From: Actinomycetota bacterium
GTDB taxonomy: Bacteria; Actinomycetota; Acidimicrobiia; IMCC26256; PALSA-610
DNA length: 58,975 nt
NCBI GenBank assembly: GCA_005772765.1
Contig: SXIR01000170.1
Span: 1-58,975, forward strand
Direction: 5' to 3'
A program made the position numbers and the translations under genes. Shown here one piece after another: positions 12,722 to 17,226 of the stretch. Under the pieces are notes generated by a model. That model worked only from the letters and a program-made list of their open reading frames with translations, was not told the DNA's origin and did no database searches. Numbering within the stretch: the stretch's first letter is position 1; each line of letters opens with the position of its first letter.

Positions 12722-12781
12722 CCGGGCAAACTCACGCTGATAGCCCTGCCCGACCACGCTGGGTGGTGCTACGGTGCCCGG

Positions 12782-12892
12782 ATGGAACGGGTGGAGAAGG
12801 CTTCTCGGATCGTTGCTGGGCGCCCCAGTCGCGGGCCGCAGACCTTGCCGCCGAACGCGAAGCGCGCGAGACTTGGGCGGTGGCCGTCATGA
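12782..12892 (+). CDS. Putative 36-aa small ORF MERVEKASRIVAGRPSRGPQTLPPNAKRARLGRWPS
   Basis: ATG 6 nt downstream of a TACGGT -10-like hexamer (possible leaderless start); stop overlaps the next start as ATGA (12889-12892). Not in the supplied ORF track. Confidence 0.35.
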   Translation: MERVEKASRIVAGRPSRGPQTLPPNAKRARLGRWPS

Positions 12893-13683
12893 GCACGAAG
12901 ACAGTGACGCGACGCAAGGCGGTCGTGTGGAGCGCTCGTGCCGGAGCCGTGGTTGCCGTTGGCGCGTGGGCAGCACCCAAGTTCGAACTCGCGGGTGCGA
13001 CCGGCACCGGAACGGGCACCGGGACGGGTTCGACGACGATTCCGCCGACCAACCCTCCGACGACCGATCCCACCGTCACGACGGCCGGGACGGGTACTGG
13101 CACCGCTGGCTCACCGTGTCCGGATCCAGATGCTCCGGCGTGCAACGAAGAAACCACCACGACGCGCCCGGGCGCCGGCAAGCGCGTCAGTTGTTCGGTG
13201 GAACCCGAAGAAGTTCGACCGAATGCCAAGGCAACGTTTCGCGGTGAGGGCTGGGAATCATCGAGCACCGTGATCATCAAGATCGTCGGCTTCGGCAAGA
13301 TCGGTGAGGCCGCAGTGCAGCCGAATGGTTCGTTCGAGCGCTCGTTGACGATTCCCGACCTGGCGAACGGCAACTATCGCGCCGAGGTCGTCGGCAGCGA
13401 CGCCGAGGGTGACGAAGCCCGCTGCTTCGACGACATGACCGTCAACCGTCAAGGCGGTACCGGCACCGGTTCTGTGACCACCGGTGGCGGCAACTCCGGC
13501 AGCGGCGGATCCGACAACAACGGATCGGGCAGCGCAGGCAGCGGGGGAGGCACCTTGCCCTTCACCGGCTCGGATTCGACGAACCTGCTCGCACTCGGTG
13601 CTGGTGCACTCGTCGTCGGTCGGGTGCTCTACGGCGTACGTGAGCGGCTGGCCGAACGAGATGCCGCCCTCGCCGATTCCTGA
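12889..13683 (+). CDS. Secreted LPFTG sortase-anchored surface protein, Gly/Thr-rich
   Basis: MSTKTVTRRKAVVWSARAGAVVAVGAWAAP signal-like N terminus; C-terminal LPFTG + hydrophobic stretch + basic tail (LPFTGSDSTNLLALGAGALVVGRVLYGVRERLAER). Confidence 0.8.
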   Translation: MSTKTVTRRKAVVWSARAGAVVAVGAWAAPKFELAGATGTGTGTGTGSTTIPPTNPPTTDPTVTTAGTGTGTAGSPCPDPDAPACNEETTTTRPGAGKRVSCSVEPEEVRPNAKATFRGEGWESSSTVIIKIVGFGKIGEAAVQPNGSFERSLTIPDLANGNYRAEVVGSDAEGDEARCFDDMTVNRQGGTGTGSVTTGGGNSGSGGSDNNGSGSAGSGGGTLPFTGSDSTNLLALGAGALVVGRVLYGVRERLAERDAALADS

Positions 13684-14014
13684 ACCGCAGTCGAGCACTC
13701 CGCATCGGACGTCGGCTTCCTTCGTCGTCGGCGCCGACGTCGTCGTTCGTCGCTACGGTGACGTCGTGCTTGCCTGCTCCAGCTCCGTTGGCACCTTCGT
13801 TGCTCCGACCGTCGTGCGGATCAGCGGCACCGCCCTCGTGGTGTGGGACGCATTGGCGGCCGAACCCGATCTCGAGCGGCTCGGTCGACGCATCGCGCAG
13901 CGTTACACGATCGACGAGACCGTCGCAGCAGCCGACGTCCGTGACGTCGTTGCAGATTGGTGCGCCGCTGGCATCGTCGAGGTGATCGACCCGAGCGAAG
14001 CGCCCAAACCGTGA
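13661..14014 (+). CDS. PqqD-like (RRE-type) peptide chaperone family protein
   Basis: VVVRRYGDVVLACSSSVGTFVAPTVVRISGTALVVWDALAAEPDLERLGRRIAQRYTIDETVAAADVRDVVADWCAAGIVE resembles the PqqD fold; overlaps upstream CDS by 23 nt. Confidence 0.65.
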   Translation: MPPSPIPEPQSSTPHRTSASFVVGADVVVRRYGDVVLACSSSVGTFVAPTVVRISGTALVVWDALAAEPDLERLGRRIAQRYTIDETVAAADVRDVVADWCAAGIVEVIDPSEAPKP

Positions 14015-15132: not shown

Positions 15133-15938
15133 CTCGCGCGGTCGCAACTTTTCGGGCGCTCGACGCGCGATGGACCGTCGAGGCCTCTCCGTGGTGGGTC
15201 GAACGGATCGCGACGGTCTTCGCCGCGACGCAGGTCAGCGACGATGCGAACGAACCGGCGGATCTGCAGTTCCGGATCGAGGGCGACGGTCCCGCGACGC
15301 TCACGAGCGCCGGACATTCGCTTTTGCGGGATGTACGTGTGGCCGCTGTGCTCGACCGCATCGTGTGGGAGGTGAACCAACTTGCGTGGCGTGCGAATCC
15401 CGCCGCGGTCTTGGTGCACGGCGGCTTGGTCGAACGCGCTGGACGTGCGGTCCTCGTGACCGGCCCCTCCGGGGTTGGAAAGACGACCCTCGTCGCGAGC
15501 CTCTGTCTACGCGGATTCGGTTACCTCTCCGACGAGATTGCCGCGCTCGGTCCGAGCGGACCGACTGCCTTCGCGAAACCGTTGTCGATTCGGCCCGGGG
15601 CGCAAGCGAGGTTCGGTCCGTTCGCGCCGCCCGCTGATCTTTCCGAGCTGATGACGAGTGCCTGGTACGTCCCGTTGGCGTCGGCGACCGCCAACGAGGT
15701 CGCAGTCGTTGTCTTCGTCGATCACGACGACCAGCGCTCGACGGCGCTGCGTCGCGTGCCGCGCGCCGAAGCCTTGGTCCGGCTCTGCGACCAGACCCCC
15801 AACCTGGCGGCGTCAGGTGCCGTCGGTTTTCGGCGGCTTGCCGCGATGGTCCGCGGCGCGCAGTCGGTCGACCTTGTGGCCAACGATCTCGGCCTTGCGG
15901 CGGATCTCGTCGTCGACGTGCTGGAATCACCCCGATGA
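15129..15938 (+). CDS. HPr kinase/phosphorylase-like protein
   Basis: VLVHGGLVERAGRAVLVTGPSGVGKTTLVASLCLRGFGYLSDEIAAL: Walker A and HprK-like DE motif; ATGA overlap. Confidence 0.75.
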   Translation: MTRAVATFRALDARWTVEASPWWVERIATVFAATQVSDDANEPADLQFRIEGDGPATLTSAGHSLLRDVRVAAVLDRIVWEVNQLAWRANPAAVLVHGGLVERAGRAVLVTGPSGVGKTTLVASLCLRGFGYLSDEIAALGPSGPTAFAKPLSIRPGAQARFGPFAPPADLSELMTSAWYVPLASATANEVAVVVFVDHDDQRSTALRRVPRAEALVRLCDQTPNLAASGAVGFRRLAAMVRGAQSVDLVANDLGLAADLVVDVLESPR

Positions 15939-16171
15939 CGGTGCGTCCGGTGGGTGCGTTGGTGGTCGAGGTGCTCGACGGCGAAGCGGTGATCTTTGCA
16001 CCCGCCGATGGACGCGTGCACCGACTCAACGAGATTGCCACTCGGTGGTGGTCGAACATCACTGCGGGAATCGAACCCGATGATCCAGCCGATCGAGAGG
16101 AATACGCCGAGTTCGTTGCGCAACTTGCGACCGCAGGACTCGTCGTCGATGTCGACGGGCGGCGTCGGTGA
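15935..16171 (+). CDS. Second small PqqD-like protein (78 aa)
   Basis: VLDGEAVIFAPADGRVHRLNEIATRWWSNITAGIEPDDPADREEYAEFVAQLATAGLVVD; ATGA overlap with HprK-like gene. Confidence 0.65.
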   Translation: MTVRPVGALVVEVLDGEAVIFAPADGRVHRLNEIATRWWSNITAGIEPDDPADREEYAEFVAQLATAGLVVDVDGRRR

Positions 16172-17226
16172 ACCTCGATGCGCTGGCGCTCGGTGTGCTG
16201 TTCGGAGGCTTCGGTGTCCTCGTCGGCGCGGTGTTCATCTTCTTGGTAGGTCGGCGCGGGCACGCCGATGGTGGTCTCGGCGTGTGGGTGGCCGCAGCCG
16301 GACTGTTGGCCGTCGAGTACACGAGCGAGGTCACCCAGCTCGTGCCGTGGGCGGCGATCGCTGCGATCGTTGTCCTCGCTGGTGGTGGGCTCTTCTTCGA
16401 CCGCGTGCCTGCTCGCTGGTCGCCGCTGGTGTTCGTGCCCGGCGCGAGTGCTCTGGCGCTGGTGCCCTTGAACGGGATCGAGCTGCAGACTCGAGTTGCG
16501 CTCGGGCTGATCACACTGGTTGCGTGCGTCGGGGCCGCCGACTTCGAACGCGCCCACGTGAGTGACGGCTTCGCCTTGTGGCTGTTCCCCGTCACCGCGC
16601 TTGTCCCCGCGCTCCTCATCGATGGTGGGACCGAACCGGGTTGGGCCTTTGCCGGTGCGTCGGCCGTGATGGTGGTCAACGTGATTCCTCGCCCGCGGGC
16701 TCGGCTCGGCGCGCCGGGTATCGCAGCGCTCGTCGGTGCGTACCTCTGGGTCGGAACGCTGTTGTCGGCGAATCGGGCGGTTCGGATGGCAACCCTGTTT
16801 GCCGGCTTGGGGTTTGTCGTCCTCGAGCCGCTTGCGCGCAATCTCGGGCGCATCGAAGCGCGGGGGCGCCGTCGGACGGGCAAGCGTCTCCAGGATCGTG
16901 ATGCGGTCATCATCGCGACTGGGGTGTTCGGCCAGGCAATCATCGGGTTCTTCGCAGTCCGCGTCACCGGGCACAGCCGCCGCTCCGAGTATGCGTTGTT
17001 GGTGTTGCTGGCGGTGCTGTCGGCGTTCACCGCAACCGCCCGGGCGTTCGTGCCCGCGGCGAACCGTCGACGCACAGGCGACTCGCGGCGACGCTCAGGC
17101 GGGCGTTCTCGGCGCGGGGCAACGTGGGTGCGGGCGGTTACCGGCGACCGATCGCACCGGAGCCACCGCGGTCGTCACCGCGGTCGTCATCGCAGTCGTC
17201 ATGGCGACGGTCGCGACAACGTCTGA
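16168..17226 (+). CDS. Polytopic membrane protein with basic His/Arg/Ser-rich tail
   Basis: About 10 hydrophobic segments; tail RSHRSHRGRHRGRHRSRHGDGRD; GTGA overlap. Confidence 0.6.
   Translation: MNLDALALGVLFGGFGVLVGAVFIFLVGRRGHADGGLGVWVAAAGLLAVEYTSEVTQLVPWAAIAAIVVLAGGGLFFDRVPARWSPLVFVPGASALALVPLNGIELQTRVALGLITLVACVGAADFERAHVSDGFALWLFPVTALVPALLIDGGTEPGWAFAGASAVMVVNVIPRPRARLGAPGIAALVGAYLWVGTLLSANRAVRMATLFAGLGFVVLEPLARNLGRIEARGRRRTGKRLQDRDAVIIATGVFGQAIIGFFAVRVTGHSRRSEYALLVLLAVLSAFTATARAFVPAANRRRTGDSRRRSGGRSRRGATWVRAVTGDRSHRSHRGRHRGRHRSRHGDGRDNV

What the first reader, a model, noticed from the sequence alone, without database searches (positions are those of the whole stretch)
12770..17226. 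Compact LPFTG / PqqD / nucleotidyltransferase / HprK-like / PqqD / membrane-protein operon: candidate undescribed peptide- or surface-protein-modification system
Seen: a 36-aa ORF, an LPFTG protein, two different PqqD-like proteins flanking a nucleotidyltransferase and an HPr-kinase-like P-loop protein, then a polytopic membrane protein. Most junctions are ATGA/GTGA overlaps. Known: PqqD/RRE domains deliver precursor peptides to modifying enzymes; HprK homologues (ThcoK/PadeK in paeninodin-type lasso pathways) phosphorylate precursor-peptide C-terminal Ser; nucleotidyltransferases co-occur with such kinases in pseudomycoidin-type clusters; HprK-related/PqqD pairs are also catalogued beside exopolysaccharide loci. 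Inference: no lasso cyclase or B2 protease is visible here, so this would be a non-lasso pathway, with either the 36-aa peptide or the LPFTG surface protein as substrate.
Basis: partly seen in the sequence, partly recalled or inferred. Interest (0 to 1): 0.85.

Follow-up and report, generated by a model that had tools for sequence, protein, structure and literature searches.

The report
Cassette tagging surface proteins before export
A soil or water actinobacterium carries a gene cassette that probably recognises a short motif inside the export signal of a surface protein and adds phosphate and sugar to the protein, which would extend a trick known from small peptide natural products to full-size exported proteins.

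Summary
In detail: an LPFTG protein, two PqqD-type RRE domains, a PF14907 nucleotidyltransferase and an HprK-like kinase lie in overlapping genes. The 36-aa ORF is unconserved. The module is larger than reported: in relatives the genes form one block with a Wzz/tyrosine-kinase gene and a GT-C-fold membrane enzyme (window 17264-20592, minus strand). Both RREs match lasso/LPP leader-binding RRE crystal structures best. The main finding is in the LPFTG protein. Its twin-arginine export signal contains WAAPKF, the [W/Y]xxPx[hydrophobic] motif that such RREs bind in lasso and LPP leaders. Across 396 Acidimicrobiia-class genomes, exported proteins with an RR...WxxP signal occur in 42 genomes, and all 42 encode both PqqD and the nucleotidyltransferase (43 of the other 354 do; Fisher p about 3e-33). 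The four further profile hits, in cassette-free genomes, lack WxxP. Two thirds of such genes lie within 20 kb of a PqqD or nucleotidyltransferase gene. One relative encodes signal and PqqD domain in a single ORF. Best explanation: a RiPP-like, RRE-guided phospho-/glyco-tailoring system for exported proteins, whose signal peptide doubles as the RRE leader. The chemistry is inferred from PadeK, PsmN and LPP homologues; nothing was tested biochemically.

The parts
12889..13683 (+). Exported surface protein, proposed substrate: RR at 12910-12915, W27-A-A-P30-K-F32 at 12967-12984, low-complexity linkers, Ig-like middle (by eye), LPFTG + TM + basic tail
   Evidence: homologues 49-73% identical
12967..12984 (+). 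WAAPKF, candidate RRE-binding motif [W/Y]xxPx[hydrophobic] inside the signal peptide
   Evidence: alignment A1; 57/58 W and 58/58 P in the non-redundant set, which was selected partly by this pattern
13555..13569 (+). LPFTG sortase-type motif
   Evidence: sortases elsewhere in genome
13661..14014 (+). PqqD1: discrete RRE domain; conserved Asp92 aligns with the Asp of LppB that hydrogen-bonds the leader Tyr
   Evidence: PF05402 36.7 bits; profile best PDB hit TbiB1 5v1u 8e-10, LppB 9x8z 7e-7
14011..15132 (+). PF14907 nucleotidyltransferase-fold enzyme; invariant K111, G112, R126, D130, D132
   Evidence: model pLDDT 89.7, PDB matches are MNT-fold enzymes and FKRP
15129..15938 (+). HprK-like kinase; invariant H97, G117, K118, D135, E136
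   Evidence: TIGR04352 71 bits, 9/9 homologues match it, alignment, HPr kinase structures
15935..16171 (+). PqqD2: second discrete RRE domain
   Evidence: PF05402 23.8 bits; profile best PDB hit TbiB1 5v1u 4e-13
16168..17226 (+). Polytopic membrane protein, no known family; present in part of the relatives
17264..18760 (-). GT-C-fold polytopic membrane enzyme (start uncertain; the frame is open to 19594); invariant Asp105 after the third predicted long helix
   Evidence: conserved beside the cassette; model pLDDT 85, top 18 PDB matches all GT-C (STT3/OST, ArnT, ALG9, PMT, PglB), best E 0.02
18841..20592 (-). Wzz-type copolymerase / BY-kinase with a (GY)n tail
   Evidence: TIGR01007 84 bits, Wzc-like; conserved beside the cassette

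Best explanation
This is a RiPP-like tailoring system whose substrate is a full-size exported surface protein. Step 1: in the cytoplasm a PqqD/RRE domain binds the WxxPx[hydrophobic] motif inside the protein's twin-arginine signal peptide, so the signal peptide doubles as a RiPP leader. Step 2: the RRE delivers the protein to the HprK-like kinase, which phosphorylates a Ser/Thr. Step 3: the PF14907 enzyme adds a sugar or sugar-phosphate to that phosphate, as its homologue PsmN appears to do on phospho-Ser in pseudomycoidin. Step 4: the protein is exported by Tat, cut by signal peptidase and, here, anchored by sortase. Outside, the GT-C enzyme with the Wzz/BY-kinase extends the tag or joins it to the locus's exopolysaccharide. 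Shown here: gene content, synteny, RRE relationship, the motif and its co-occurrence. Inferred: RRE-motif binding, phosphorylation, glycosylation, Tat route and polysaccharide attachment.
For: Families and active-site residues. Block synteny Wzz/BY-kinase - PqqD1 - nucleotidyltransferase - GT-C - HprK - PqqD2. RR...WxxP proteins beside it, with or without LPXTG. Genome-wide association in 396 genomes: all 42 WxxP genomes have both PqqD and PF14907, against 43 of 354 others, p 3e-33; outside the window's order 21/21, p 9e-20 (motif read in 41 of the 42, the last accepted on a 51-bit profile score). Within families: f1 10/10 vs 0/4, f11 4/4 vs 0/3. 40 of 62 profile hits lie within 20 kb of a PqqD/PF14907 gene, expected fraction about 0.07. 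Single-ORF fusions: signal + PqqD (L170 5657-7555), GT-C + HprK (L203 10786-13461). Motif equals the experimentally established [Y/W]xxPx[L/V/I/F/A] RRE-binding motif (PMC13381572), and PqqD1 keeps the Asp that contacts the leader Tyr. PadeK/PsmK phosphorylate and PsmN glycosylates (PMC9266682). Sortases and TatC in the genome.
Against: No binding, modification or export data. The A1 profile was seeded with proteins found near cassettes (the association was then measured genome-wide), and the WxxP counts were partly selected by a pattern. Genomes are related, so p-values overstate independence. 43 genomes with PqqD and PF14907 gave no WxxP hit. One same-genus relative (L033/L174) lacks PqqD1. 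The modified residue is not evident: Ser/Thr at W+7 in 40/58, but Leu in the window protein. The motif lies in or next to the hydrophobic part of the signal, which might compete with membrane insertion. TIGR04352/04353 cut-offs are not reached. The GT-C assignment rests on fold matches with E >= 0.02.
Confidence: 0.55

Rival explanations
1. The cassette is a regulatory or assembly part of exopolysaccharide production: HprK/nucleotidyltransferase/PqqD act on the polysaccharide machinery or on another carrier, and the WxxP proteins are matrix proteins co-regulated with it but not modified.
For: Constant association with a Wzz/BY-kinase and GT-C enzyme, an EPS locus around it, and the naming of HprK_rel_A/PqqD_rel_X as one 'HPr-rel-A' system in NCBIfam.
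Against: Does not explain why the protein signals carry an RRE-binding motif, why WxxP genes also occur unlinked but only in cassette genomes (for example G006, 687 kb away), or the signal-PqqD fusion.
Confidence: 0.22
2. A classical small RiPP (LPP-like linear phosphopeptide): the true precursor is a short peptide not recognised here, and the LPFTG protein is a neighbour.
For: RRE + HprK + NTP-transferase are the LPP/paeninodin tailoring set, also found in capsular loci (PMC13381572). LPP precursors reach 200 aa, so some WxxP proteins overlap in size.
Against: No conserved short ORF; the 36-mer is unconserved. No SpI-like peptidase or MsbA-like exporter among the neighbours scanned. WxxP sits in long exported proteins in every lineage examined.
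Confidence: 0.1
3. WxxP is simply a structural feature of one class of Tat signal peptides and has nothing to do with PqqD; the correlation reflects shared ancestry or lifestyle.
For: The profile was seeded near cassettes; the genomes are related.
Against: The contrast holds within families (f1, f11) and outside the seeding order. The four profile hits in cassette-free genomes are RR signals without WxxP.
Confidence: 0.1

Closest known systems
LPP (linear polyphosphorylated peptides), Popov et al. 2026, PMC13381572
   Same: Discrete RRE, HprK-like kinase, NTP transferase, embedded in capsular polysaccharide loci; precursor N-terminus with [Y/W]xxPx[hydrophobic]; signal-peptidase-type leader removal
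   Different: LPP is described as restricted to Bacillota, with a dedicated SpI-like peptidase and MsbA-like exporter and precursors of 35-200 aa with the motif YxxPxVLxHQxIxFETxxS. Here: Actinomycetota, two RREs, an exported 264-aa LPFTG protein with an RR signal, and GT-C and Wzz/BY-kinase partners instead.
Paeninodin/pseudomycoidin-type lasso peptide pathways (PadeK, ThcoK, PsmK, PsmN), reviewed in PMC9266682
   Same: HprK-like kinase phosphorylating Ser; PsmN, annotated as nucleotidyltransferase, adding hexose to phospho-Ser; RRE-guided; WxxP leader in paeninodins
   Different: No macrolactam cyclase or B2 protease among the window genes scanned; the substrate is a large exported protein.
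HPr-rel-A system (TIGR04352 HprK_rel_A, TIGR04353 PqqD_rel_X)
   Same: Same kinase subfamily by best match (71 bits), PqqD partner, polysaccharide neighbourhood
   Different: Scores far below both curated cut-offs. No function was found in the searched library (no paper holds 'HprK-related kinase'), and no signal-motif substrate is recorded there.
FKRP-type polyol-phosphate transferases
   Same: Nucleotidyltransferase fold matched by the PF14907 model; transfer of a sugar/polyol-phosphate from a nucleotide donor
   Different: Remote structural match only (TM 0.26); no sequence relation shown.

Membership tests
LPP RiPP family | Discrete RRE of the lasso/LPP type | tested here: met
   TbiB1, LppB, TfuB1, PbaB1 among the top PDB matches of both PqqD profiles
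LPP RiPP family | HprK-like kinase and NTP transferase | tested here: met
LPP RiPP family | SpI-like (SipW-type) leader peptidase and MsbA-like exporter in the cluster | tested here: not met
   Pfam scans of the called genes between 591 and 58291 show none
LPP RiPP family | Precursor of 35-200 aa with YxxPxVLxHQxIxFETxxS | tested here: not met
   264-aa protein with WAAPKFELAGATG
LPP RiPP family | Multiple phosphorylation of the precursor | not testable with these tools
   needs mass spectrometry
Lasso peptides | Macrolactam cyclase and B2 transglutaminase-like protease | tested here: not met
   none among Pfam hits of the window genes scanned
HPr-rel-A system (NCBIfam) | Score above TIGR04352 (200) and TIGR04353 (35) cut-offs | tested here: not met
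   71.1 and 13.9 bits; TIGR04352 nevertheless matches 9/9 homologues
Sortase substrates | LPxTG + hydrophobic stretch + basic tail, sortase in genome | tested here: inconclusive
   sequence features present, Pfam 14.8 bits under the cut-off of 20, three sortases
Tat substrates | Twin-arginine signal recognised by the Pfam TAT_signal model | tested here: inconclusive
   RR invariant in alignment A1, TatC present, but the Pfam TAT model gives only E 0.1-0.4 in some homologues
GT-C glycosyltransferases | GT-C fold with extracytoplasmic catalytic Asp | tested here: inconclusive
   top 18 fold matches are all GT-C but E >= 0.02, TM about 0.45; invariant Asp105; no Pfam hit for the window protein

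The most novel reading that the evidence does not exclude
A class of protein modification in which a protein-export signal peptide also serves as a RiPP leader: RRE domains read WxxP in twin-arginine signals and direct phospho-glycosylation of folded surface proteins before export, priming or anchoring an exopolysaccharide on them. It would be widespread in Acidimicrobiia and other Actinomycetota.
Probability: 0.45. Interest if true: 0.9.

Novelty: new variant of a known kind. Interest (0 to 1): 0.76.

Why it matters
HprK/PqqD/nucleotidyltransferase cassettes near polysaccharide loci are common, yet no substrate is recorded for them in the papers found here. The signal-peptide motif supplies a testable substrate set of dozens of exported proteins, each with the binding residues named, and would link RiPP-type leader recognition to bacterial surface-protein glycosylation. 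It also gives a sequence handle for finding substrates in any genome: search for RR...WxxP signals.

Tried and rejected
36-aa ORF as precursor: no homologue in any other fetched locus. LPXTG as the conserved feature: rejected; only the window's family has it regularly, others keep the signal with different C-termini. 'O-antigen ligase' label for 17264-18760: first used on impression, no Pfam support, replaced by GT-C after fold search. G+[S/T] 17-18 residues after the motif, matching the modified Ser of LPP: striking in the first 12 proteins, but not sustained in the 58-sequence set; the only clearly enriched hydroxyl position is +7. Single-sequence PDB searches of PqqD1/PqqD2/NTase found nothing useful; profiles were needed. 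Literature searches for PqqD + HprK + nucleotidyltransferase, or HprK-related kinase, found no functional study beyond lasso/LPP work.
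Full report
What is there. The window is a whole contig (C155, 58,975 bases) of a 3.6-Mb, about 80% complete draft genome. Named relatives are Acidimicrobiia and other Actinomycetota MAGs. Six genes run on the plus strand at 12889-17226: an LPFTG protein, PqqD1, a PF14907 nucleotidyltransferase, an HprK-like kinase, PqqD2 and a polytopic membrane protein. 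The last four junctions are GTGA or ATGA overlaps. The 36-aa ORF before them has no homologue in any other locus fetched, and I set it aside.

The unit is larger than reported. I searched relatives with the kinase and read 20-kb neighbourhoods. In most of them one block holds a Wzz/BY-kinase gene, PqqD1, the nucleotidyltransferase, a polytopic membrane enzyme, the kinase and PqqD2. In the window the BY-kinase (18841-20592) and the polytopic enzyme (17264-18760) are convergent on the minus strand. The BY-kinase matches TIGR01007 and Wzc-type families. The polytopic enzyme has no Pfam family. Its AlphaFold model (pLDDT 85) matches GT-C glycosyltransferases in the first 18 places (OST/STT3, ArnT, ALG9, PMT, PglB), though with E of 0.02 or more, so I call it GT-C-like. 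Exopolysaccharide genes surround the cassette: AftD-like and PMT_2 proteins, Bac_transf, Wzy_C, GT2, sulfotransferases and a MatE-type protein.

The enzymes look intact. The kinase keeps His97, the P-loop Lys118 and Asp135-Glu136 in all homologues aligned. The nucleotidyltransferase keeps Lys111-Gly112, Arg126 and Asp130-x-Asp132; its model matches nucleotidyltransferases and, remotely, FKRP. Profiles of both PqqD groups match leader-binding RRE crystal structures best: TbiB1 5v1u at 8e-10 and 4e-13, with LppB 9x8z, TfuB1 6jx3 and PbaB1 9x90 also among the significant hits. The Asp invariant in the PqqD1 group aligns with LppB Asp70, which hydrogen-bonds the leader tyrosine (PMC13381572; alignment; the numbering offset of 18 is my own matching of the chain to the paper's residues).

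The substrate candidate. The LPFTG protein begins MSTKTVTRRKAVVWSARAGAVVAVGAWAAPKFELAG. Proteins beside the cassette in relatives share RR, a hydrophobic stretch, W-x-A-P and a short AxA site, whatever their C-terminus. [Y/W]xxPx[L/V/I/F/A] is the motif that lasso and LPP RREs bind (PMC13381572). A profile of these N-termini (A1) was searched in whole genomes. In 396 genomes of the class, 46 had a hit at 1e-4, of which 42 encode both PqqD and PF14907, against 43 of the other 350 (odds ratio 75, p 3e-28). Reading the hits, the four exceptions are RR signals without WxxP, so all 42 WxxP genomes carry both (p 3e-33; outside the window's order 21 of 21, p 9e-20). I read the motif directly for 41 of them; the last (G034) is accepted on its 51-bit profile score. 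Within family f1 it is 10/10 against 0/4 and within f11 4/4 against 0/3. Forty of 62 profile hits lie within 20 kb of a PqqD or PF14907 gene. These p-values treat genomes as independent, which they are not; the within-family contrasts are the better guide.

The same association appears in a second collection with names: Knoellia locipacati (L206), Nostocoides sp. F2B08 (L209), Ilumatobacter nonamiensis (L207), Nitriliruptoraceae (L200, L201) and a Propionibacteriales MAG (L184). Fusions also point to a physical link: WxxP signal plus PqqD in one ORF (L170), GT-C plus HprK in one ORF (L203), and an RR signal without WxxP plus HprK in one ORF (L049, L052). In a non-redundant set of 58, W is 57/58 and position +5 is I, V, L, M or F in all, partly by selection; Ser/Thr at +7, not part of the selecting pattern, is 40/58. 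The window protein has Leu at +7, so I do not claim a modification site.

How it most likely works. By homology the kinase phosphorylates Ser/Thr (PadeK, ThcoK, LppK) and the nucleotidyltransferase adds sugar to the phosphate (PsmN adds one or two hexoses to phospho-Ser; PMC9266682, which also leaves open true nucleotidylation). The RRE brings the substrate by its signal peptide. Tat export would fit, because it carries folded, already modified proteins (general knowledge). TatC and three sortases are in the genome. The GT-C enzyme and Wzz/BY-kinase suggest that the tag is extended outside or joins the exopolysaccharide. Only the gene content, motif, relationships and co-occurrence are shown; every chemical step is inference.

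Comparison with the known. LPP is the nearest described system (RRE + HprK + NTP transferase in capsular loci), but two of its defining features, the SpI-like peptidase/MsbA exporter and the short YxxP precursor, are tested and not met, and its authors describe it as restricted to Bacillota. Lasso membership fails (no cyclase or B2 among the genes scanned). NCBIfam's HPr-rel-A models are the best match but far below cut-off. I therefore rate it a new variant of a known kind: it works like an LPP/paeninodin tailoring pathway and is not a member of those families on present tests.

Noticed in passing
L182 and L197 (CAMBEL010000008.1, CAMDSG010000012.1): Two public MAG records titled Bifidobacterium breve carry this cassette; by length and position they correspond to contigs that the genome search places in the window's own order (G034, G043), so the titles look wrong.
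   Followed up: partly
L170:5657-7555(+): One ORF holds an RR...WAAP signal and, at its C-terminus, a PqqD domain: a natural signal-RRE fusion.
   Followed up: partly
L203:10786-13461(+): GT-C-like enzyme and HprK-like kinase in a single ORF.
   Followed up: partly
L049:5965-7335(+), L052:9508-10866(-): An RR signal-like N-terminus without WxxP is continuous with the HprK-like kinase in two genomes of one family.
   Followed up: no
L042, L050, L044, L039, L047, L137, L153: Non-LPXTG WxxP proteins share conserved C-terminal endings such as LVYLIYCCP or DISHVELVV(R/K)CC, a possible second recognition or assembly element.
   Followed up: no
L033:11428-12167(-): In the nearest same-genus relative the LPXTG gene is split into two overlapping ORFs and PqqD1 is missing.
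   Followed up: partly
window 6483-10901: AftD-like arabinofuranosyltransferase (PF11847, 272 bits) of 1472 aa directly upstream, with two PMT_2-type proteins (4603-6486, 10898-12721).
   Followed up: no
window 18841-20592 (-): The BY-kinase ends in a long GYGYGY tract, a tyrosine cluster written as a near-perfect dipeptide repeat.
   Followed up: no
window 25304-54905: Several giant exported-looking proteins (PA14, DUF11, PKD, NHL, GSDH domains) interleaved with exopolysaccharide genes and two sulfotransferases.
   Followed up: no
G006:C1:1795065 (L165): An RR...WSAPAI signal gene lies 687 kb from the cassette in the same genome, so substrates need not be linked.
   Followed up: partly
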